From positions 1 through 64,000 of the forward strand of contig JAHBXW010000013.1 of assembly GCA_019636235.1 (NCBI GenBank): a stretch of 64,000 nucleotides of DNA, given 5' to 3'. Origin of the DNA: Planctomyces sp. GTDB lineage: Bacteria; Planctomycetota; Planctomycetia; Planctomycetales; Planctomycetaceae. Made by a program: the position numbers and the translations under genes. This document shows, piece by piece, positions 34,963 to 50,012 of the stretch (position 1 is the first letter of the stretch; each line of letters begins with the position of its first letter). Under the pieces are notes generated by a model. That model was not told where the DNA came from. It made no database searches and worked only from the letters and a program-made list of their open reading frames with translations.

Positions 34963-36828
34963 TCAGGGGCTGGGCGTGACTTCCGGCGGCCGGGAGCCCG
35001 CGTCGAGGTCGACGTTGCGGAGGACCTTGGTGGGGGGGGATTCGGGCTCGGGTTCGGGGAGCGAGTCGGTTTCTTCGGGGCTGAGGCCGCCGGCAGGGGC
35101 CTTGCCGCCGAGGAACAGGTTCGGGACCAGGGCCTCGTCGCCGATCTGAACCTCGGTCGACTGTCCGCTGGGGAGCGGCCGCTGGTAGACCCGCAGCGCC
35201 TGCGGCATTTCATCGATGCCGATGCGGCCGGGGAGGTTGTGCTGCAACTGGGCCTGGACCAGCATCTGCACGATGTCGGGATAGCTGGCGCCCAGATCGG
35301 AGCAGGCGCGGATGACGTCGGCGATGCGTGCGGAGACCTCCAGCGACCGGGGAGTTTCGCCGGCCGCGATTCGGGCGACCTTGACGATGCCGCTGCCCGC
35401 GTCGCCGCGGACGACGATCCGCTGTCCGGCGCGGACCATCAGCGGCGTGTCAAATTTCTGATCCTGTCCGAACAGGACGATCTCGGCCTTCTGATAGCGG
35501 GTCAGATGCACGACCGGCGTCCCCTGCGAGGCGATGGCGTGCAGCTTGAATCCGCCCGGCAGCTTCTCGCCGCGGATGTTGGGATCGTCGGGATTGGACG
35601 TGCTCAGGGCGCGGAACGCTCCGTACTTTGTTTCCACGCTGTCGCTGTTCATCAGTTCCACGAGGGCGTTGAAGGCGTTGCCGTCATCGAGCGTGGCCAT
35701 CGCGGCGAGGGCGTACACGCGAAAGGCGGCCTCAGTGGCGGCGACGTCCTTCAGGACGGTCGAGCCGGCGGGATCGCCGAGATAGGCCAGCGCCTCCGCG
35801 GCGCGGAACCGGCACTCCAGGATCGGCGACTTGAGCCCTTCCTTGAGGATCGGAATCGATTCGTGGCCGATGGCTTCGAGCTGCAGCGCGGCCGACTCGC
35901 ATTCGTCGGCGGAACCCAGACGGTCGCGCAGCGCCTGGATGCGCAGGTGGCGTTCGACGGGGGACTCGCGGAGGGCGATGCTGCGGACGACCTGCATGTA
36001 GCGCGGGAAGTTGTCGCGGTAGCGATCCGGGACGAGCAGCGTGATCTTGCGGTCGGTGTTGGCCTCCGCCTGGGCCCGCTGCAGGCCGTGCCGGTCGTAA
36101 TCATGAAAGCGGTCGCCGATTCTCTGGGCGATGCGGTGCGAAAGCTTGGCGCTGCGATAGTCCTGGCGAACCATGGCGACGAGGCTGCGATCCCCGCCGA
36201 CATACGTCGCGCCGCCGGGCACCGTGCCGCGGATCTGGCTGCCCAGCGAGCCCTTTTCGTCCTGGATGCCCAGCAGGATCGGGCCCGCGGCCTTGGCCAG
36301 CCGCTTGCCCTCGCGCACGCCGCCGCCGGAGACGTTCGCGTATTCCTTGAGATCGCACTCCAGCAGCCAGCCTCCGGACAGGCTGGTGCACTTCGTGCCG
36401 TCCGGCAGCATGACTTCAATGTCGAACGGCTCTCCCTTTTTGATCAGCGGCGGGAGCATGGCGCGGACCAGCACCAGGGCCGTGTCCTTGGAGCGCAACA
36501 GCGTGTTCGGGTCCTTGACGCCGCGACGCTTCATGTCTTCCATCAGCTTGGTGCGGAACGGCGAAACCGGAATGTCCTCGCCCGTGCCGTCCAGATTCGT
36601 GATCAGTCCGACCCCCTCGAGGACGACGTTGGTAAACCCGGAGACGCTGATGTAATCGCCGATCAGCTTGGAGTGCCCGTGGCGGCCTTCCAGCGCGCCG
36701 GTGGCGTTCGCCTTGCTGACCTTCCGCTCGTACTCCTTGGGGTCGCGAATGCGCAGCATGAGATCCTGGCAACCGGAGCACAGCAGGGCCGCTGCGAGAA
36801 TCGCGGAGAGTGTCTGGGGGGCGGTCAT
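34963..36828 (-). CDS. FlgI (P-ring)-like lipoprotein with inserted HEAT domain
   Basis: A 621-residue lipoprotein (lipobox LCSGC, Cys20). Residues about 55-180 resemble the start of flagellar P-ring protein FlgI: VVLEGVGLITNLDGTGED, LVRAMLPPLIKKGEPFDIEV and LSGGWLLECDL correspond to the YGLVVGLDGTGD, VMVTASLPPF and LRGGTLLMTPL stretches. A middle FlgI-like part follows (SAKLSHRIAQRIGDRF, LLVPDRY). About 290-430 is a HEAT-like helical repeat region (CRFRAAEALAYLGDP, AAFRVYALAAMATLDD). FlgI-like sequence then resumes to about 560 (ADVIRACSDLGASYPDIVQM). The tail is Pro/Glu-rich. No other flagellar gene is in the window. Function is open: a P-ring variant, or a FlgI-fold protein for another envelope structure. 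Confidence 0.75.
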   Translation of the reverse strand: MTAPQTLSAILAAALLCSGCQDLMLRIRDPKEYERKVSKANATGALEGRHGHSKLIGDYISVSGFTNVVLEGVGLITNLDGTGEDIPVSPFRTKLMEDMKRRGVKDPNTLLRSKDTALVLVRAMLPPLIKKGEPFDIEVMLPDGTKCTSLSGGWLLECDLKEYANVSGGGVREGKRLAKAAGPILLGIQDEKGSLGSQIRGTVPGGATYVGGDRSLVAMVRQDYRSAKLSHRIAQRIGDRFHDYDRHGLQRAQAEANTDRKITLLVPDRYRDNFPRYMQVVRSIALRESPVERHLRIQALRDRLGSADECESAALQLEAIGHESIPILKEGLKSPILECRFRAAEALAYLGDPAGSTVLKDVAATEAAFRVYALAAMATLDDGNAFNALVELMNSDSVETKYGAFRALSTSNPDDPNIRGEKLPGGFKLHAIASQGTPVVHLTRYQKAEIVLFGQDQKFDTPLMVRAGQRIVVRGDAGSGIVKVARIAAGETPRSLEVSARIADVIRACSDLGASYPDIVQMLVQAQLQHNLPGRIGIDEMPQALRVYQRPLPSGQSTEVQIGDEALVPNLFLGGKAPAGGLSPEETDSLPEPEPESPPTKVLRNVDLDAGSRPPEVTPSP

Positions 36829-39318: not shown

Positions 39319-40353
39319 TCAGGGCGCCGCGAGCTGCCGGGCATCGCGGTAGACGTAACGGCCCCGCGACCCGGCCGCAAGCTTCTGCAGAAAGTTCGGC
39401 AGCGGGCGGCCGCTGGCATCCGTCGGCTCGGGCCCTTCGCCGAAGTCGATGCAGTGGATCTGCGCGCCGCTGCGGTTCTTGCGCAGGGCGTCGTCGAGTT
39501 CCCGCGCCGACATCGGATCGGCGGAATCCGTCAGAAAGAAAATGACGTCCGGATTATACTCATAGGCCTTCAGCAACGCCGGCAGCCGGTCGGTGCCGCC
39601 GTCGGCCGTGACGTCCTGCAACTGCCGCACGACCTGCTCGCGATCCTCATCCGTCCCGGAGAACACGTTGAAGCGGGTCTTCAGCGTCGTTGTGCGGTTG
39701 CTGAAGAACACGACCTGAAACTTCTGCTCCCGGTCGAGTTGCTGCAGGCTGGCCAGGAGTTCGCCCTTGGCGGCGGCGAGGACGACGTCCATGCTCGACG
39801 ATCGGTCGATGACATACACGAACCGGCGGCCCTTGGCGGCGACCTGAAACAGGCTGGTCTCGCCGGCTTCGCTGCGGACCGCACCCCCCGACGATGCGCC
39901 TGCGGGATTGCCCGTCGCGGCGGAGGCCGGACTGGTCGGCGGCAGGCCCGCGCCCAGCGGAGGAGCGCCGCGGCCAATCACGGGACGCTCCGCCGGGCGC
40001 GGCAGGGTCAGGGGAATGGGCGGTTCGGCCGAGGCGATGGGCGACGGCGGGCGACTGTGGACGGGCGTGGATTCCGGACTGGCCGCATTCGCTTCCGTCG
40101 AGGTAGGCGTGGGCGCGGGCTGCGACGCGGCGGGCGTTCGCAGCACGATGCCGACCTCCCGCGCGCCGGCGTCGCTGAGCCGTTCGCCACGAGTCGCCCG
40201 GCAGCCTGGGGATTGGGACGCCAGGACGATCGCCGTCGCCGCGCCGACATGCAGGCACGCCGAGAGAATCCAACCCGAGCCGGCGGCCCACGCGAGGCGC
40301 GGCGTCAGCCAGTCGGGGATCTCTCGGGACAGCCTCGGCGCGGGAGTCGCCAT
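39319..40353 (-). CDS. VWA-domain protein with N-terminal membrane anchor
   Basis: A 344-residue protein. One transmembrane helix lies at about 25-46 (GWILSACLHVGAATAIVLA). A long Pro/Ala/Ser/Thr-rich linker runs to about 165. A von Willebrand A domain fills about 170-340, with the metal-ion-dependent adhesion motif D-R-S-S-S (Asp183) in FVYVIDRSSSM. Asp in FFLTDSADP and Thr in GGTDRLPALLKA complete the expected site. It probably displays a metal-dependent binding domain outside the membrane. It lies in a leftward run of unrelated genes, so no partner can be named. Confidence 0.82.
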   Translation of the reverse strand: MATPAPRLSREIPDWLTPRLAWAAGSGWILSACLHVGAATAIVLASQSPGCRATRGERLSDAGAREVGIVLRTPAASQPAPTPTSTEANAASPESTPVHSRPPSPIASAEPPIPLTLPRPAERPVIGRGAPPLGAGLPPTSPASAATGNPAGASSGGAVRSEAGETSLFQVAAKGRRFVYVIDRSSSMDVVLAAAKGELLASLQQLDREQKFQVVFFSNRTTTLKTRFNVFSGTDEDREQVVRQLQDVTADGGTDRLPALLKAYEYNPDVIFFLTDSADPMSARELDDALRKNRSGAQIHCIDFGEGPEPTDASGRPLPNFLQKLAAGSRGRYVYRDARQLAAP

Positions 40354-41521: not shown

Positions 41522-44500
41522 ATGCCGAAACCGCCTCGTGACCTGTTGCGGGACTTTCAGGCGGCCATCGAGACGCGGCTGCGTCTCGAGCGCGAATTCC
41601 AGACGGGAGCCCGGGCTAGCGACCCGCAGCTGGCTGAGGCGCAGGCCGGACTGCAGGCGGCGGAGGATCGGGCCGCGGCCGAGGCCGCAGCGATCGACGC
41701 CAAGGCGGAAGCCCGGCGTCGCGCGGCGCTGGAGCGATTCGAGACGGCGGAACGCGCCGCTCGCACAGAACACGATGCCCAGGTTCGTCAGACAGTCCGT
41801 GCCCTGGACGCCGAAACGGCCGACCTGGAACGGCAGCACGCCGACAGCGCCTGGGTTGTGACGTCCCTCCTCGACGAAAGCCACGATGAGAATCCCGTCC
41901 GCCAGCACGAACGGTTCGTGGGCGGCGTCGAGCGCACCCGGGCCGAGCAAACGGCGGCCCTGGAGGCGGCGGAGCTACGGTTCGAGGAACAGCTCCAGGA
42001 GGCCGGCCGAGCCCGCTGGGACATCGCGCCCGATGCCCTCTCCGGCTCGACGCCCGACGATCTGCAGGAGCAGTTTCAGCAGCACTTGCAGGCTGCGGAG
42101 CAGGCCGCCGAGCGGGGCCGGAAGCTGTTCCTGCCCAGGCTGTTCAAAGGGTTCCGATCGCTGTGGTTGTTCGCGCTGTTGTTCGGGGCGATCTTCGCGC
42201 CGGTTCTGCTGGCGGTCGATCCGGCGCTGTTGAGCATCGTCAGCGGGCGGTTCGGAGGGGAATGGCTGGCGATTTCGTTCGGCGCGGCGGCGATCGGCGC
42301 GCTGATCATCACGCTGGCGTTGTATTCGCTTTCGTCGATGGCCGTGTCGGACGTGCTGCAGGACCGCGAGCGAGCGCTGGCGACGGCGCGGGCGGCTCGT
42401 AAACAGTGGGATGCGGCGACAAACCGCGACCTGGCGCGCCGCGATCCGGAGATCAGGCAGATGCAGGCGGAGATGGAGACGCGCCGCGAGGAGACGCTGG
42501 AACGCTATCGCCAGACGTACGACGCGCGGATTGCCGAGCTGCGGCAGCGCCGCGCGGATGCGCTGTCGCAACTCGCGGAGACCCTCCAGACGCAGCATCG
42601 CGAAGCGACGGCCCGCCGCGATGCGGAACTGGCCGCCGCGGACGCCGACCACCAGTCCCGGCAGGTCGAACTGGCACACAGCGGCCTGGCGGAATCGGAT
42701 CGGCTGAAGTCGGAGATCGCCGCCCGACTGACGGCCCGCCAGAAACAGCAGTCGGCGATCTGGTCCGAGCTGAAGACCGGCTGGGAGCGAGCGACCGCGG
42801 ACTTGTGGAGCGCGGTTGACGACGCCCGCGCGGACAGCGGCGAGCAGTTCCCGAACTGGCCGACGCTCGCGGCCCCGGATCGAAACTGGCCGACGGCGAT
42901 CCCGTCCGGCATCCGGCTGGGGGAATTCGAGATTCACCTCGACTGCTGGGAGGGGGCGGTCTCCAGCGACATGCGGCTGGCGCCGCGGACGACAAGTTTT
43001 CGGCTGCCGGCCACGCTGCCGTTCCCCGCCCGGCCCAGCCTGCTGCTGAAGTCATCGAGTCCGGAGGGGCGGGCGGCGGCGCTGCCGATTCTGCAGACCG
43101 CCGTGCTGCGACTGCTGACGTCGTTGCCCCCCGGAACGATCCGGCTGACGCTCATTGACCCGGTGGGCCTGGGAGACAGTTTCGCCGGTTTGATGCATCT
43201 GGCCGACACGGACGAACTGCTCGTCAACAGCCGGATCTGGACGGAGCCGGGGCAGATCGAGGCGCGTCTGGCTGACCTGACGGAGCACATGGAGAACGTT
43301 CTGCAGACGTATCTGCGGAACGAGTTTCCGACGCTCGAGGACTACAACGCCCACGCGGGCGAAGTCGCCGAGCCATACAGGATCCTGGTGATTCGCGACT
43401 TCCCGTCGAAGTTCTCGGAGGTCGCGGCCCGGCGGCTGACGAGCATCATCGTCAGCGGACCGCGCTGCGGCGTGTACACGTTGATGGCCATCGACGGCAA
43501 GCTGCTGCTTCCGAACAACTTTCATCTTGCGGACATCGAGGCCGCGATGAACGTCTTTGAATGGCGCAGCCCGGGAGAACGCCGCGAACGACCGCTGGAC
43601 TGGGTCGAGCCGGAACATCCGATCGCCGCCCCGGGGGAGCCGCCTCAATCCAGGGACGAACGACCGCCTGCGTTTTACGCCGTCGACCCCGTGTTGTCGG
43701 ACTGGCCGCTGCTGCCCGATGAACCGCCTCCCGCGGACACGTTCTCCCGGATCGTCAAGCAGGTCGGTGCGGCGTCGCGCGGCGCCCGGCGGGTCGAAGT
43801 CTCGTTCGAACGCATCGCGCCCTCGCGCGAAGAACGCTGGTCGCGGGACAGCCGCGCGGGCATCGACATCCCGATGGGCCGGGCCGGGGCCGTCAAACTC
43901 CAGCACGTCCGCCTCGGGCAGGGGACGTCGCAGCACATGCTGATCGCCGGCAAAACCGGGTCCGGCAAGTCGACGTTCCTGCACGGGCTGATCACGAACC
44001 TGGCGCTGCACTACAGCCCGGATGAGTTGCAGTTTTTTCTGATCGACTTCAAGAAGGGGGTCGAGTTCAAGGACTACGCGGCCTGGCGACTGCCGCACGC
44101 GCGGGTCATCGCGATCGAAAGCGACCGCGAGTTCGGTGTGAGCGCGCTGACGCGGCTCGATGAACTCATGCAGGAGCGCGGAGAGCTGTTTCGCCGGCAT
44201 GGCGTTCAGGACATCGCCGGGTTCCGCAATGCGAATCCGCGCCGACCGCTGCCGCGCGTGCTGCTCGTCATCGACGAGTTTCAGGAGTTTTTCGTCGAGG
44301 ACGATCGGTACAGCCAGTCGGCGGCGCTGCTGCTGGACCGGCTGGTCCGGCAGGGGCGGGCCTTCGGCATCCATGTCGTGCTCGGATCGCAGACGCTGGG
44401 CGGCGCGTATTCACTGGCGCGGAGCACGCTGGGGCAGGTCGCCGTCCGCGTGGCGTTGCAGTGCAGCGAAGCGGACGCGCATCTGATCCTCAGCGAGGAC

Positions 44501-45640
44501 AACACGGCCGCGCGCCTGCTGACGCGACCGGGCGAAGCGATCTATAACGACGCCAACGGCCTGGTCGAGGGCAACCATCCGTTCCAGATCGCCTGGCTGC
44601 CCGACGACCAGCGCGAACAGTATCTCCGCGAACTCAGCAGTCTGGCGGAACAACGGCAGTTGGAACTCGATGCGCCGCTGGTGTTCGAAGGCAACGTGCC
44701 CTCGGACCTGTCGACGAATTCCGGCATTCTGCGGCTGATCGAAGCGGCGGCCGAGCGGTCCGGGGCGGAACTGCTGGCGCCGCGGGTCTGGCTGGGCGAC
44801 GCGGTCGAGATCGGCGATCCGACGTCCCTGTCGCTGGAGCGGCAGACGAGCGCGAACGCCCTGTTCGTCGGACAGGAGCAGGAGGCGGTGCAGGGCATCT
44901 TCGCGTCGGCGGCGCTGGCGCTCGCGCTGCAGGGACCGGCGGATGATTCGCCCGAGCGACGGACGAACGAGGCGCCGTCGGCCGAGGAGGCGACGGTCTG
45001 GCTGTTCGACGGCAGCGCGGCGAGCGATCCGGCGCGGCGGACCTGGGCACGGCTGCAGGAGGCGCTCGGCGGGCGGCTGAGGATCGTTGCGGCGAGCGAC
45101 GCGGCAGGCGCTGTCGGCGAACTGATGCGCGAGTTCGAGTCCCGGGACGGGAACCGTCAAGAATTCGGGCCGACGATCGGCATCTTCATTTACAACCTCA
45201 GCCGGTTTCGCGACCTGCGAAAGGCCGAGGACGACTTCGGCTTCGGCGGCATGGGCGGCAGCGAGGCCCCGCCGTCGTCCGCGAAGCAGTTTTCGCAGCT
45301 CCTGTCGGGCGGCCCGGACCTGGGACTGCATGCGTTCGTGTGGGCAGACTCGTACAACAACGTCGAACGGTGGTTCAGCCGTCAGACGCTGCGCGACTTT
45401 GAATGGCGGATCCTGTTCCCGATGAACGCGGCCGATTCGAGCAACCTGATCGACTCGCCGCAGGCATCGCGGCTGGGGCCGGGGCGCGGAATCTTGTATC
45501 GCGAGGACCGCGGCACGACCGAAAAGTTCCGGCCGTATGCCGTTCCCGCGGACGAGCTCCTGGCCGGCGCGCAGCGTCGCCTGCAGGGAGCGCCGCCGCT
45601 CGAGCTGGCCACGGACCTGGAAGAGTTTCGCGTCCTGTGA
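41522..45640 (+). CDS. membrane-anchored FtsK/SpoIIIE-type ATPase, EccC-like layout
   Basis: A 1372-residue protein. Residues 1-205 are charged, coiled-coil-like helix rich in Ala, Glu and Arg. Two transmembrane helices follow (about 214-233, 249-270), then more coiled coil to about 445. The remainder looks like three RecA-type modules. The middle one (about 780-1040) is an FtsK/SpoIIIE motor with Walker A GKTGSGKS (810-817), Walker B VLLVIDEF (Asp918, Glu919) and the VVLGSQTLGGAYSL segment. A preceding module (LLLKSSSPEGRAAALP at 507, then IRLTLIDPVGLGD) and a following one (ALFVGQEQEA at 1113, then VWLFDGS) mirror its strands but lack P-loops. That layout recalls EccC of type VII secretion more than FtsK: no gamma domain is evident, and no WXG100 gene is near. 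The cargo, DNA or protein, is unknown. Confidence 0.82.
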   Translation: MPKPPRDLLRDFQAAIETRLRLEREFQTGARASDPQLAEAQAGLQAAEDRAAAEAAAIDAKAEARRRAALERFETAERAARTEHDAQVRQTVRALDAETADLERQHADSAWVVTSLLDESHDENPVRQHERFVGGVERTRAEQTAALEAAELRFEEQLQEAGRARWDIAPDALSGSTPDDLQEQFQQHLQAAEQAAERGRKLFLPRLFKGFRSLWLFALLFGAIFAPVLLAVDPALLSIVSGRFGGEWLAISFGAAAIGALIITLALYSLSSMAVSDVLQDRERALATARAARKQWDAATNRDLARRDPEIRQMQAEMETRREETLERYRQTYDARIAELRQRRADALSQLAETLQTQHREATARRDAELAAADADHQSRQVELAHSGLAESDRLKSEIAARLTARQKQQSAIWSELKTGWERATADLWSAVDDARADSGEQFPNWPTLAAPDRNWPTAIPSGIRLGEFEIHLDCWEGAVSSDMRLAPRTTSFRLPATLPFPARPSLLLKSSSPEGRAAALPILQTAVLRLLTSLPPGTIRLTLIDPVGLGDSFAGLMHLADTDELLVNSRIWTEPGQIEARLADLTEHMENVLQTYLRNEFPTLEDYNAHAGEVAEPYRILVIRDFPSKFSEVAARRLTSIIVSGPRCGVYTLMAIDGKLLLPNNFHLADIEAAMNVFEWRSPGERRERPLDWVEPEHPIAAPGEPPQSRDERPPAFYAVDPVLSDWPLLPDEPPPADTFSRIVKQVGAASRGARRVEVSFERIAPSREERWSRDSRAGIDIPMGRAGAVKLQHVRLGQGTSQHMLIAGKTGSGKSTFLHGLITNLALHYSPDELQFFLIDFKKGVEFKDYAAWRLPHARVIAIESDREFGVSALTRLDELMQERGELFRRHGVQDIAGFRNANPRRPLPRVLLVIDEFQEFFVEDDRYSQSAALLLDRLVRQGRAFGIHVVLGSQTLGGAYSLARSTLGQVAVRVALQCSEADAHLILSEDNTAARLLTRPGEAIYNDANGLVEGNHPFQIAWLPDDQREQYLRELSSLAEQRQLELDAPLVFEGNVPSDLSTNSGILRLIEAAAERSGAELLAPRVWLGDAVEIGDPTSLSLERQTSANALFVGQEQEAVQGIFASAALALALQGPADDSPERRTNEAPSAEEATVWLFDGSAASDPARRTWARLQEALGGRLRIVAASDAAGAVGELMREFESRDGNRQEFGPTIGIFIYNLSRFRDLRKAEDDFGFGGMGGSEAPPSSAKQFSQLLSGGPDLGLHAFVWADSYNNVERWFSRQTLRDFEWRILFPMNAADSSNLIDSPQASRLGPGRGILYREDRGTTEKFRPYAVPADELLAGAQRRLQGAPPLELATDLEEFRVL

Positions 45641-46728: not shown

Positions 46729-47010
46729 TCAGCCACCCGAGACTGTCGGCAGAAACGTCACGTCCGCACCGGCGGGCAGCGGCGTCGACAGGCCCGTCGA
46801 ACAGATGCGCGAGTTCACCGCGACCGCCAGCCCCGTCCGCAGCCGATCCCCCTCGCAGAGTCGGTCCCGCAGCCCCGGAAACTGCGCGTCCAGTGCGGCG
46901 ACCAGGTCCCGCACGGTCGCCGCCCGCGCCGTCGCCTGAGCAGCCCCGCCGGTCAGCCGGCGCAGCGAGGCGGGAATCTGCACCGTCAACTCCGGGCCGT
47001 CGTCGCTCAT
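46729..47010 (-). CDS. MoaD/ThiS-family sulfur carrier
   Basis: A 93-residue ubiquitin-like protein ending in Gly-Gly (FLPTVSGG), the tail that is thiocarboxylated in MoaD and ThiS. TVRDLVAALDAQFPGLRDRL and VAVNSRICSTGLSTPL match the MoaD-like core. It is longer at the N-terminus than ThiS. Without moaE, moeB or thi genes nearby, molybdopterin synthesis cannot be told from another sulfur-transfer role. It lies 77 bases downstream of the DUF1501 gene on the same strand. Confidence 0.85.
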   Translation of the reverse strand: MSDDGPELTVQIPASLRRLTGGAAQATARAATVRDLVAALDAQFPGLRDRLCEGDRLRTGLAVAVNSRICSTGLSTPLPAGADVTFLPTVSGG

Positions 47011-47087
47011 CTGTCGTCCTGCCGCGGCGCGGGTCTGGGTGCGGAGCGAACCGGCGCCGGCCCTGCCCGCCGCCGCGCGGGAACGCC

Positions 47088-48467
47088 TCACACCAGCTCG
47101 TGAATCAGCTCGCCATGGTCGATTGCCGGAATCGGCCGCCCGCTGTGATTCAGGAAGGCGATCTCCCGGTCGACGCCGAGCACGTGGAAGATTGTATGGT
47201 GCAGATCGCCGGGGCGAAGCGGGCGTTCCGCGGGATTCTCGCCCAGCCGGTCGCTGGCGCCGACGACAAGGCCCCCCTTCAGGCCGCCGCCCGCCACAAG
47301 CACGGACATCACATTCCCCCAGTGATCGCGGCCGGGAGTTCCCTGGCTCAGCGGCGGGCCGCCGTTGCCTCCGTCGTTCATCCGCGGCGTGCGGCCGAAC
47401 TCGCCGCAGACGATGACCATCACCCGGTCCAGCAGCCCGCGCTCGACGAGGTCGCTGATCAGGGCGCTGACCGCCATGTCGACTTGCGGCAGATACCGCT
47501 CCATCGCCGACTGGTGATCCCAATGCGTGTCCCAGCCCCCGAAATGGCAGGTGACGAACGTGCTGCCCGCCTCCACCAGCCGCCGGGCCAGCAGCACGCT
47601 CTGCCCCCAGCTTGTGCGGCCGTACCGCTCGCGGGAGATCGAGGGTTCCGTGGAGATGTCGAACGCGTCCCGGGCCGCGGAACCCGTCACGAGGTCGAAC
47701 GCCTGCTGGTCGAACCGATTCATCGCCTCGACGATGCCGCGCTGGTCGGCGTCCCGTCGGAGCCGGTCCAGCCCGCCGATCAACTGCCGGCGGCTGTCGA
47801 GTCGGTCCAGCGTCAGGCCGGCGATCGAGGACAGGTTGGTCACCTGAAACTGGTCGGCGTTGGGATCGCCTTCGGTCTCGAACGGATTCTGATCCACGCC
47901 CAGATAGTTGCCGCCGAAGTACCCGGGCCGCAGACCGATGCTCATGGCGTAAGGGACGGCGACGTTGGCCGGCATGCCGGCGCGGCGGGCGCCCGTCATC
48001 TTCGTGGCGATGCTGCCGATGAAGGGATACCGCTGGGGCGTGTTCGCGCCGTTGACCTCGCCGCGGCCGGTCAGCATCCAGTGGCCGCCGGTGAAGTGGT
48101 CGCCCGTGTCATGGTGCATCGAGCGGATCAGCGAGTACCGGTCGGCAAGCTGCGCCTGCCGGGGAAACAGTTCGCAGACGTCCATTCCGGGGACGTTGGT
48201 CGGGATGTGCCGCCAGATGCCGCGGTACTCGGCCGGAGCGTCCGGCTTGGGATCGTAGGTGTCGTGATGGCTGGGGCCGCCGTCCAGCCAGATCAGAATG
48301 ACGGACGTGTCCTTCGCCGGCCGCCCCGATTCCGCCGCCGCCGCCCGACCGCGGAGCACGTCCTCCAGCCCCCAGGCGCCGAGCCCCGCGGCCCCGATCT
48401 GCAGGAACGAACGGCGATTGACGCCATCGCAGTAGGCGGGCGTCCGACCCAATTCAAGGCGAAGCAT
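47088..48467 (-). CDS. DUF1501 twin-arginine protein
   Basis: A 459-residue member of the DUF1501 family, very common in planctomycetes and related to alkaline-phosphatase/sulfatase folds. A Tat-like signal includes NRRSFLQIGAAGLGAWG. Family segments are VILIWLDGGPSHHDTYDPKP, LIRSMHHDTGDHFTGGHWM, VTCHFGGWDTHWDH and MVIVCGEFGRTPRMN, whose Asp and His residues could bind metal. Function is uncharacterised; paired cytochrome-domain genes are frequent elsewhere but not here. The start at MLRLELGRT is an ATG 21 residues ahead of the signal core, normal for the family. Confidence 0.92.
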   Translation of the reverse strand: MLRLELGRTPAYCDGVNRRSFLQIGAAGLGAWGLEDVLRGRAAAAESGRPAKDTSVILIWLDGGPSHHDTYDPKPDAPAEYRGIWRHIPTNVPGMDVCELFPRQAQLADRYSLIRSMHHDTGDHFTGGHWMLTGRGEVNGANTPQRYPFIGSIATKMTGARRAGMPANVAVPYAMSIGLRPGYFGGNYLGVDQNPFETEGDPNADQFQVTNLSSIAGLTLDRLDSRRQLIGGLDRLRRDADQRGIVEAMNRFDQQAFDLVTGSAARDAFDISTEPSISRERYGRTSWGQSVLLARRLVEAGSTFVTCHFGGWDTHWDHQSAMERYLPQVDMAVSALISDLVERGLLDRVMVIVCGEFGRTPRMNDGGNGGPPLSQGTPGRDHWGNVMSVLVAGGGLKGGLVVGASDRLGENPAERPLRPGDLHHTIFHVLGVDREIAFLNHSGRPIPAIDHGELIHELV

Positions 48468-48749
48468 GCGGCGTTTCCTCGACAGGCAGCGGGCGTGGCG
48501 AATCCATCGACACGGACGCATCAACGGTAACTTACGCGTTCCGGCTGCGTCAATTGGAGAGAACGGACGATGGCCTGCTGCGCTCCATCCCGCGCGTCGC
48601 GGCCGGTCCATGCCCTGCGGGGGATTCCCGGAGCTTCCACGGGGGTCCGCTCCTTGACCGCCCGCGGCGGCGTGGGTCGAATGAACGTCGGTCGTCCGCT
48701 CCGTCCGATCGACTTCGCAATCCTCGACCTTGAGGTCGCCCGCCGCGCC

Positions 48750-50012
48750 ATGCTTCTGCCCCGGATGATCCGCGTTCGACAGACGTTCGAACGCCCGCTG
48801 ATCGAGGACGTCGCCGCAGAGACCCGGCGGCAACTGGCGTCGCTGCAGCTCGAGCGCCGCGTGTCCCCCGGGCAGACGGTGGCCATCACGGCCGGCAGTC
48901 GCGGAATCGCCAACGTCGCGGACATCACGCGGGCGATCGTCGCCCACTGCCGCGATCTGGAGCTGCAGCCCTACATCGTCCCCGCGATGGGCAGTCACGG
49001 CGGCGCGACGGCCGACGGCCAGCGCGAGCTGCTGGCAGGATACGGCATCACGCAGGAGCTGGTCGGGGCGCCGATCCGGTCGTCGATGGAGACGGTCGTC
49101 GTCGACACGACTCCGCAAGGCATCCCGGTGCACTTCGACCGGCACGCCTCGCAGGCGGACCACGTGATCGTCGCCGGCCGCGTCAAGCCGCACACGGGCT
49201 TCGTGGGGGACATCGAGTCGGGCCTGCACAAGATGATGCTGATCGGCCTGGGCAAGGCGACAGGCGCGGCCATATATCACAAGGCCATCAAGGACTTCAC
49301 ATTTCTGGAGATCATCCGGGCCGTGGCCGAGGCGGTGATCCGGCGCTGCCGGGTGCTGTGCGGCGTGGCGATCGTCGAGAACGCCTACGATGAGACGGCG
49401 CGGATCTCCGCCGTGCGGCCGGAGGAGTTCTACGATCGCGAGGTCGAGTTGCTGCGGCTGGCGCGGCAATGGCTGCCGCGGCTGCCGTTTCCCGACGTGG
49501 ACCTGTTGATCGTGGACCGCATCGGCAAGGAGATCAGCGGGACGGGGATGGACACGAACGTCGTGGGCCGCAAGTACAATGACCACGCGGCGACCGAGCG
49601 GGACGAGGCCCGCGTCCGACGGATATTCGTCCGGGGGCTGACCGAACAGACGCACGGCAACGCGACGGGCATTGGCATGGCGGAGTTCACGACGCAGTCG
49701 ACCGTCGATGCGATCGACATGGAAATCACGAAGGTCAACTGCGTGACGGCGGGGCATCCGACGGCGGCGATGCTGCCGGTCACCTACGACACGGATCGCC
49801 AGGCGATCGAAGCGGCGCTGTTGACGATCGGACTCACGCCGCCGGAACGGGCCCGCGTGGTCCAGATCTCCGATACGCTGCACCTGGCGACGACGCTCGT
49901 CAGCGAGGCGTATGCCGGCCTGCTGCAGGAGCGGGACGATCTGGAAGCGCTCGACGAGGCGGCGCCGATGTCTTTCGACGAACGCGGCGGTCTCTGGCCG
50001 GTCGGCGAGTAA
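48750..50012 (+). CDS. LarA-like (DUF2088) protein
   Basis: A 420-residue protein related to the N-terminal domain of lactate racemase LarA, a family of nickel-pincer or related racemases and isomerases. Segments include VAITAGSRGIANVADITRAI, PAMGSHGGATADGQRELL, and HVIVAGRVKPHTGFVGDIES with GLHKMMLIGLGK, then RIGKEISGTGMDTNVVGRKY. The His/Lys set suits substrate or cofactor binding. No larB, larC or larE is adjacent, so nickel-pincer use cannot be assumed. The start at MLLPRMIRVRQTF was chosen because similarity begins there; an ATG at 48681 would add 23 residues. It diverges from DUF1501. Confidence 0.85.
   Translation: MLLPRMIRVRQTFERPLIEDVAAETRRQLASLQLERRVSPGQTVAITAGSRGIANVADITRAIVAHCRDLELQPYIVPAMGSHGGATADGQRELLAGYGITQELVGAPIRSSMETVVVDTTPQGIPVHFDRHASQADHVIVAGRVKPHTGFVGDIESGLHKMMLIGLGKATGAAIYHKAIKDFTFLEIIRAVAEAVIRRCRVLCGVAIVENAYDETARISAVRPEEFYDREVELLRLARQWLPRLPFPDVDLLIVDRIGKEISGTGMDTNVVGRKYNDHAATERDEARVRRIFVRGLTEQTHGNATGIGMAEFTTQSTVDAIDMEITKVNCVTAGHPTAAMLPVTYDTDRQAIEAALLTIGLTPPERARVVQISDTLHLATTLVSEAYAGLLQERDDLEALDEAAPMSFDERGGLWPVGE

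What the first reader, a model, noticed from the sequence alone, without database searches (positions are those of the whole stretch)
41522..45640. Three-module FtsK/EccC-like ATPase with only one intact nucleotide site
By eye the chain holds three RecA-like modules. The middle one has perfect Walker A and B (residues 810-817, 914-919). The one before it (LLLKSSSPEGRAAALP, IRLTLIDPVGLGD) and the one after (ALFVGQEQEA, VWLFDGS) keep the strand pattern but have no P-loop. With two N-terminal membrane helices this is the EccC layout of type VII secretion, yet long coiled coils flank the helices and no WXG100, EccB, EccD or mycosin gene is near. It may be the motor of an uncharacterised envelope translocation machine in planctomycetes.
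Basis: partly seen in the sequence, partly recalled or inferred. Interest (0 to 1): 0.65.

Follow-up and report, generated by a model that had tools for sequence, protein, structure and literature searches.

The report
Minimal type VII-like export motor, planctomycetes
The gene encodes a membrane-anchored relative of the EccC/EssC secretion motor with one working ATP site, and it is kept or lost together with two small WXG100-like proteins and a hairpin protein, so some planctomycetes appear to carry a stripped-down, four-part type VII secretion system, here scattered around the chromosome.

Summary
The 1372-aa protein (41522-45640) has two membrane helices and three FtsK/EccC-like modules. 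Only the middle module has a P-loop: 81 of 81 sequences, against 0 of 81 in each outer module. Foldseek's best match is Thermomonospora EccC. 'No WXG100 nearby' is true for the window, not for the family. In 45 of 62 homologue loci with enough upstream DNA the gene follows three others: A, a WXG100-family protein; M, a long helical hairpin; B, a second small W-x-D protein. The window's genome has one copy of each, on three other contigs. Of 59 genomes 39 have all four genes, 17 none, 3 a part. In a 119-genome phylum sample, motor and A occur in the same 12. In 17 of 17 genomes lacking A beside the motor, A lies elsewhere. YukC is absent (0 of 59); EccB could not be judged; neither A nor B carries the usual export motif. 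The core idea is in print: Zhang 2012 (a footnote naming planctomycetes) and Bell 2024. New here: the membrane anchor, the hairpin partner, the strict four-way link and the dispersal. Export is inferred, not shown.

The parts
41522..45640 (+). gene E: membrane-anchored three-module FtsK/EccC-like ATPase, 1372 aa (P0001)
42161..42217 (+). transmembrane helix 1 (about residues 214-232)
   Evidence: hydropathy 2.55; two such helices in 77 of 81 sequences
42266..42322 (+). transmembrane helix 2 (about residues 249-267)
   Evidence: hydropathy 2.34
42884..43591 (+). module 1 (residues 455-690), RecA-like, no P-loop
   Evidence: model; 0 of 81 with a P-loop pattern
43661..44668 (+). module 2 (residues 714-1049), the one intact ATPase module
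43949..43972 (+). Walker A GKTGSGKS (810-817)
44261..44278 (+). Walker B LLVIDE (914-919); D918 and E919 in 81 of 81
44675..45598 (+). module 3 (residues 1052-1359), RecA-like, no P-loop, conserved NxLxVGQ in its place

Best explanation
E is the motor of a minimal type VII-like export system made of four proteins: A (about 90 aa, WXG100 family), M (about 175-200 aa, two very long helices forming a hairpin), B (about 70-80 aa, second W-x-D helical protein) and E. Shown: the four genes form an operon A-M-B-E in most relatives, and are kept or lost together even where the operon has been broken up, as in the window's genus; E is membrane-anchored and has one P-loop ATPase module between two P-loop-less ones, on the EccC plan. 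Inferred: A, B and M form a pre-secretion complex, as an LXG protein does with its two WXG100-like partners in T7SSb; the complex docks on the outer modules; E hexamerises and the middle module drives the complex across the inner membrane, with M or what is attached to M as cargo. M looks like a carrier whose C-terminal passenger varies: a short, mostly polar tail in most, an extra domain of about 170-190 aa in 4 of 49, and, in the same cassette position on a Helicobacter plasmid, a protein with a nuclease domain. Likeliest history: a mobile toxin-exporting cassette that became a fixed chromosomal system in planctomycetes, gained or kept a membrane anchor, and lost the nuclease.
For: Cassette A-M-B directly upstream on the same strand in 45 of 62 loci with at least 2 kb upstream, B alone in 7, none in 10; no hit of A, M or B in any other place of those loci. 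A is WXG100 by Pfam (40.0, 36.6 and 39.9 bits, cut-off 27.3; 3 of 3 sampled); PF06013 is over its cut-off in 37 of 59 genomes (the window genome's own A scores 26.6, just below). Co-occurrence in 59 genomes (window's own included): all four 39, none 17, A+B only 1, E only 1, M+B+E only 1; Fisher p 1e-11 to 3e-14, not corrected for kinship. In 119 genomes drawn from the phylum, E and A are found in the same 12, three of which are also in the 59. 17 of 17 genomes whose E locus lacks A nearby have one A elsewhere (at least three of them appear to be genomes already in the 59). In the window's genome A, B, M and E lie on C6, C42, C43 and C5; in its congener, one chromosome, at 0.71, 1.94, 2.66 and 0.23 Mb, with A 93% identical between the two and E about 60%. 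Structure: Foldseek top hit EccC 4nh0, E 1.7e-30. Module 2 by profile matches EccC ATPase 1 best (E 2.6e-20), then ATPase 2 (2.8e-13) and 3 (2e-5). M model: helices 9-75 and 86-158, pLDDT 87.4. Relatives on plasmids have a WXG100 gene recognised by the planctomycete A profile: Caballeronia E 1e-22, Helicobacter 3e-15, Rhodococcus 4e-11, Deinococcus 3e-7; not found on the fifth, Rhodococcus pseudokoreensis.
Against: No secretion data. A and B carry W-x-D, never W-x-G (20 of 20 and 26 of 26), and the YxxxD/E export motif is in 0 of 20 A, 1 of 26 B and 7 of 23 M. B reaches the Pfam WXG100 cut-off in 0 of 4 sampled; that it is WXG100-like rests on size, W-x-D and helical pattern. No EssB/YukC in 59 genomes, and YukD in 7 of 59, unrelated to presence of E, so channel or partner subunits are unknown. 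M has no significant structural match (best Foldseek E 0.07; VIA Z up to 11.3, within what long helices give). M's kinship to the plasmid coiled-coil proteins is detectable in only 2 of 4 (25.5 and 19.4 bits against best shuffles 5.8 and 2.3; the Caballeronia and Helicobacter ones do not beat shuffles). Best structural Z for module 2 alone is with FtsK (25.8), so the fold does not by itself separate protein from DNA transport. Alignment of modules 1 and 3 to EccC by sequence is not significant.
Confidence: 0.7

Rival explanations
1. An intracellular stress or defence machine: E is a FtsK/HerA-type nucleic-acid or complex-remodelling motor and A, B and M are cytoplasmic adaptors, as in TerY-P/CoCoNuT islands.
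For: Plasmid relatives sit beside TerY-P-type genes (Caballeronia: VWA, CARF, PP2C, kinase) and TerD genes (Rhodococcus, with TerD fused to the motor); Bell 2024 places such motors in CoCoNuT operons. Module 2 has its highest Z with FtsK.
Against: The planctomycete motors carry a membrane-helix pair (77 of 81) that the five plasmid relatives lack at comparable strength. No TerY-P-type neighbour recurs: after A, M and B the largest non-overlapping neighbour cluster is a DUF1501 family in 13 of 81 loci. WXG100 partners usually mean export (Bell 2024 argues likewise).
Confidence: 0.17
2. A DNA translocase (FtsK/SpoIIIE paralogue) acting in chromosome segregation or conjugation.
For: FtsK_SpoIIIE domain and membrane anchor.
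Against: Genome has a separate FtsK (221 bits, C43); no gamma domain match; best whole-length structural match is EccC; family patchily absent in relatives (18 of 59 lack it); tied to WXG100 protein A.
Confidence: 0.05
3. A relic in this lineage: the operon has broken up and the parts are decaying.
For: Dispersed in the window's genome and congener; the window's A falls just under the Pfam cut-off.
Against: All four genes open and single-copy in both species; A 93% identical between them; catalytic motifs intact; the same retention in other genomes with split cassettes.
Confidence: 0.05

Closest known systems
'Solo WXG' mobile T7SS with YueA-like three-domain ATPase, only the middle domain active (Zhang et al. 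2012, PMC3482391, Table 1 footnote 6)
   Same: Planctomycetes are named; three FtsK/HerA domains, middle one active, with WXG proteins. This is the same family as far as one sentence allows one to tell.
   Different: The footnote calls them mobile; here the genes are chromosomal, mostly single-copy and shared by descent-like patterns, with a membrane anchor, partner M and second small protein B that the passage seen does not mention.
EssC-like ATPase with two WXG100 proteins in extended Type III-A CoCoNuT operons (Bell et al. 2024, PMC11090510)
   Same: Three ATPase domains with only the central one active, long N-terminal coiled coil, two WXG100-like proteins (one without WxG), a coiled-coil protein in the operon.
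   Different: Those lack transmembrane helices and their coiled-coil partner bears a nuclease; here there is a helix pair, no nuclease, and no TerY-P or McrBC neighbours in the window.
EccC of T7SSa (Thermomonospora curvata, PDB 4nh0) and EssC of T7SSb
   Same: Two membrane helices, tandem RecA modules, whole-length structural match, WXG100 partner.
   Different: Three modules, not EccC's DUF plus three; one P-loop; long coiled-coil-like flanks; scores far below the EccC/EssC equivalog cut-offs; no YukC partner.
LXG-Lap1-Lap2 pre-secretion complex of T7SSb (Klein et al. 2022, PMC9600955; abstract and section list seen)
   Same: One helical carrier plus two WXG100-like small proteins, as M plus A plus B.
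   Different: No sequence relation was shown; no toxin domain in most M; no FxxxD motif in A (0 of 20).
Helicobacter pylori HP0062/HP0066 and TerY-P island WxG+FtsK (PMC4978471; passages seen)
   Same: WXG plus FtsK called a minimal set of T7SS there.
   Different: Other phylum; M not described there in the passages seen.

Membership tests
Type VII secretion system, broad sense (FtsK/SpoIIIE membrane ATPase plus WXG100 protein) | membrane-anchored FtsK/SpoIIIE ATPase of EccC/EssC type | tested here: met
Type VII secretion system, broad sense (FtsK/SpoIIIE membrane ATPase plus WXG100 protein) | WXG100-family partner linked to the ATPase | tested here: met
   A over Pfam cut-off in 3 of 3 sampled; linked by operon and co-occurrence. 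Motif is W-x-D, not W-x-G
Type VII secretion system, broad sense (FtsK/SpoIIIE membrane ATPase plus WXG100 protein) | ATPase-dependent export of the WXG100 protein | not testable with these tools
   needs an experiment
Type VII secretion system, broad sense (FtsK/SpoIIIE membrane ATPase plus WXG100 protein) | YxxxD/E export motif in a substrate | tested here: not met
   0 of 20 A, 1 of 26 B, 7 of 23 M
T7SSa (ESX) | EccB | tested here: inconclusive
   0 of 59, but no control genome rang
T7SSa (ESX) | EccC equivalog score (TIGR03924) | tested here: not met
   102.3 bits, cut-off 509
T7SSa (ESX) | EccD, EccE, mycosin | not tested
   only the YukD domain was searched (none in the window's genome, 7 of 59 overall)
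T7SSb (Ess) | EssB/YukC | tested here: not met
   0 of 59; control Bacillus subtilis rang
T7SSb (Ess) | EsxB/YukD ubiquitin-like protein (YukD) | tested here: not met
   absent from the window's genome; 7 of 59, one of them without E
T7SSb (Ess) | EsaA, EssA | not tested
   -
Solo-WXG / three-domain YueA-like ATPase family (Zhang 2012) | three FtsK/HerA modules, only the middle with a P-loop | tested here: met
Solo-WXG / three-domain YueA-like ATPase family (Zhang 2012) | WXG partner in the genome | tested here: met
Solo-WXG / three-domain YueA-like ATPase family (Zhang 2012) | mobile | tested here: inconclusive
   four plasmid records cover 80% or more of the query, none planctomycete among the rows seen; chromosomal and dispersed here; no formal test of transfer
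CoCoNuT-associated EssC-like ATPase (Bell 2024) | no transmembrane helices | tested here: not met
   helix pair in 77 of 81
CoCoNuT-associated EssC-like ATPase (Bell 2024) | TerY-P and McrBC-type neighbours | tested here: not met
   in the window, 10 neighbouring frames scanned: one VWA, no kinase, PP2C or McrB/C; family neighbours clustered
FtsK/SpoIIIE DNA translocase | gamma domain | tested here: not met
   no match at E up to 1
FtsK/SpoIIIE DNA translocase | XerCD/dif linkage | not tested
   -

The most novel reading that the evidence does not exclude
A complete protein-export system of only four proteins, working in diderm planctomycetes without any of the other T7SS membrane subunits, in which E alone forms the inner-membrane conduit and A, B and the hairpin M form the exported complex; it descends from a mobile toxin-delivery cassette and was turned to a housekeeping role after losing the toxin, which is why its genes can drift apart on the chromosome and still be kept as a set.
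Probability: 0.35. Interest if true: 0.78.

Novelty: new variant of a known kind. Interest (0 to 1): 0.55.

Why it matters
Type VII secretion is known chiefly from Actinobacteria and Firmicutes, with motors surrounded by several membrane partners; what the smallest working set is remains open. A family in which motor, WXG100 protein, a second small protein and a hairpin protein are gained and lost as a set, with no YukC and no consistent YukD, offers a natural minimal version that can be tested in cultivable planctomycetes. It also turns one footnote in the literature into a defined four-gene system, supplies the missing partners for an orphan gene, and connects it to mobile toxin cassettes.

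Tried and rejected
FtsK chromosome translocase: rejected because of no gamma-domain match, a separate FtsK, and the EccC match. Canonical ESX or Ess system: rejected as membership; EccB could not be judged. PADLOC best hits were SspH (96 bits) and mad8 (76 bits), matching only the ATPase module; not pursued. M as a toxin: no Pfam toxin domain; Imm33-like tail in 2 over cut-off and 2 below it, of the 4 long-tailed M among 49. Homology of M to the plasmid coiled-coil proteins: supported in 2 of 4, not in the other 2, so kept as a lead. L066's long M is an artefact of an over-extended start. Module register on EccC: sequence puts module 2 on ATPase 1, the whole-chain structural alignment runs module 1 to 3 along ATPases 1 to 3; unresolved. 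Fold search of M gave nothing usable. A phage-collection contig (MT836827) covers 78% of the query but is unannotated; only an HMM scan was done on it. The gene just after A in the window's genome and its congener is similar in both but has no Pfam match; not followed. Literature searches gave no functional study of the planctomycete family; subscription papers, including Anantharaman 2012 (seen only as cited), were not available.
Full report
What is there. The frame at 41522-45640 encodes 1372 aa. Pfam finds one FtsK_SpoIIIE domain at 784-958 (122.5 bits). By sequence the nearest solved proteins are EccC (4nh0, E 1.7e-31), EccC5 and YukB, ahead of FtsK. The NCBIfam EccC and EssC models match it far below their cut-offs (102, 95 and 85 bits against 509, 347 and 778). 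Two hydrophobic helices lie near 214 and 249, and 77 of 81 sequences have two.

One site of three. In 81 aligned sequences (window plus 80 homologues) the P-loop pattern is present in the middle module of 81 and absent from both outer modules in 81 of 81. The Walker residues are invariant apart from K811, which is R in 4. The AlphaFold2 model from 64 sequences (residues 455-1372, pLDDT 85.9) gives Foldseek's best match to Thermomonospora EccC, E 1.7e-30 over 980 columns. VIA-align gives EccC Z 22.5 over 715 residues but rmsd 14, meaning the modules agree and their relative placement does not; for the middle module alone FtsK scores slightly higher, Z 25.8 over 262 residues. A profile comparison puts the middle module on EccC ATPase 1 first (E 2.6e-20), then ATPase 2.

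The missing neighbours. All 80 loci returned (the best 80 of at least 382 confirmed, so biased to close relatives) were cut into frames and clustered. Three upstream families stood out, same strand, fixed order: A (about 90 aa), M (about 185 aa), B (about 79 aa). With 2 kb or more upstream (62 loci; 18 dropped for too little DNA), 45 have A-M-B, 7 have B alone, 10 have none. A matches Pfam WXG100 above cut-off in 3 of 3 sampled; B and M match no family above cut-off (4 and 3 sampled). A and B carry W-x-D in 20 of 20 and 26 of 26, never W-x-G.

The window's own genome. It has no A, M or B in the 64 kb, but one of each elsewhere: A at C6:105393-105662, B at C42:195332-195553, M at C43:208345-208845. 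The congener has the four genes at four distant places on one chromosome. Of the 39 genomes with all four, 24 have at least one contiguous A-M-B-E (21 plus 3 with a second M-B-E copy) and 15 are split in some way, 5 of them completely (some splits may be contig breaks, but not those in single-chromosome genomes such as G001, G005 and G019).

Co-occurrence. 59 genomes including the window's: 39 have all four, 17 none, G015 has A and a weak B, G036 has a partial E only, G037 lacks A. G015 and G036 are 78% complete. Thresholds were E 1e-20 for the motor, 0.001 for A and 0.01 for B and M. In a phylum-wide draw of 119, motor and A were found in the same 12 genomes. In 17 genomes whose motor locus has no adjacent A, 17 have A elsewhere. 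The Fisher values ignore kinship, but losses scattered within one family (G002, G003, G008 and others) make a single shared loss an insufficient account.

M. The model is a hairpin of two helices of 67 and 73 residues; no significant structural match. Of 49 M frames, 4 have tails of 172-187 aa (L086, L092, L106 and L112, three of them titled Phycisphaerales or Tepidisphaeraceae), matching Pfam Imm33-like at 32.7, 32.5, 24.9 and 21 bits, cut-off 27. Others end in short polar tails.

Mobile relatives. Of 617 plasmid records with a match, 4 cover 80% or more of the query. I looked at five: Caballeronia has VWA, WXG100, 436-aa protein, small genes, motor, CARF, VWA, PP2C, kinase; the Helicobacter plasmid has a WXG-like gene, a WHH/colicin-DNase-domain protein (Pfam), an SMI1-type gene, a 77-aa gene, motor; the others carry TerD genes, an Hsp70/GrpE pair or unnamed genes. 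The planctomycete A profile recognises a protein in four of the five. All five motors keep the P-loop in the middle module only, by aligned columns, and show no helix pair of comparable hydropathy (best 1.71 against 2.55 and 2.34).

How it likely works. By analogy with LXG-Lap1-Lap2 (Klein 2022, abstract) A and B would chaperone M to the motor, and M would be the exported carrier. The order and the company of genes support this; nothing here shows export, and the usual export motif is missing.

What was known. [quoted passage not shown] So the central observation is not new. In the passages seen neither gives the membrane anchor, M without nuclease, the four-way linkage or the dispersed state. 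Poulsen 2014 drew its WXG100 set almost only from Actinobacteria and Firmicutes, some Chloroflexi (passage).

Noticed in passing
window 34963-36828 (-): FlgI (flagellar P-ring) domain, 71 bits, fused to HEAT repeats.
   Followed up: no
window 39319-40353 (-): VWA-domain protein two genes from the motor; VWA genes flank the motor on the Caballeronia plasmid, but no matching cluster with a window member recurs at the homologue loci, so probably chance.
   Followed up: partly
window 46729-47523 (-) and 47088-49883 (-): ThiS-family and DUF1501 proteins downstream; DUF1501 is also near 12 other motor loci, in all orientations.
   Followed up: no
L092:8056-9108, L106:8551-9618, L112:7970-8998, L086:4524-5594: M proteins with an extra C-terminal Imm33-like domain (two over the Pfam cut-off, two below).
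   Followed up: partly
genomes G046, G050, G058: A second copy of M-B-E without a second A.
   Followed up: no
L128:6492-10457 (Rhodococcus plasmid): Motor relative with an N-terminal TerD domain.
   Followed up: no
L140 (MT836827, phage collection): Unannotated 10-kb contig from human faeces with a motor relative over 78% of the query.
   Followed up: partly
L133:3167-4348: Single-helix, coiled-coil-like protein directly after A in the window's genome and its congener; no Pfam match.
   Followed up: partly
genomes G013, G037, G042, G046, G050, G052, G058: YukD-like genes unlinked to the motor family.
   Followed up: no
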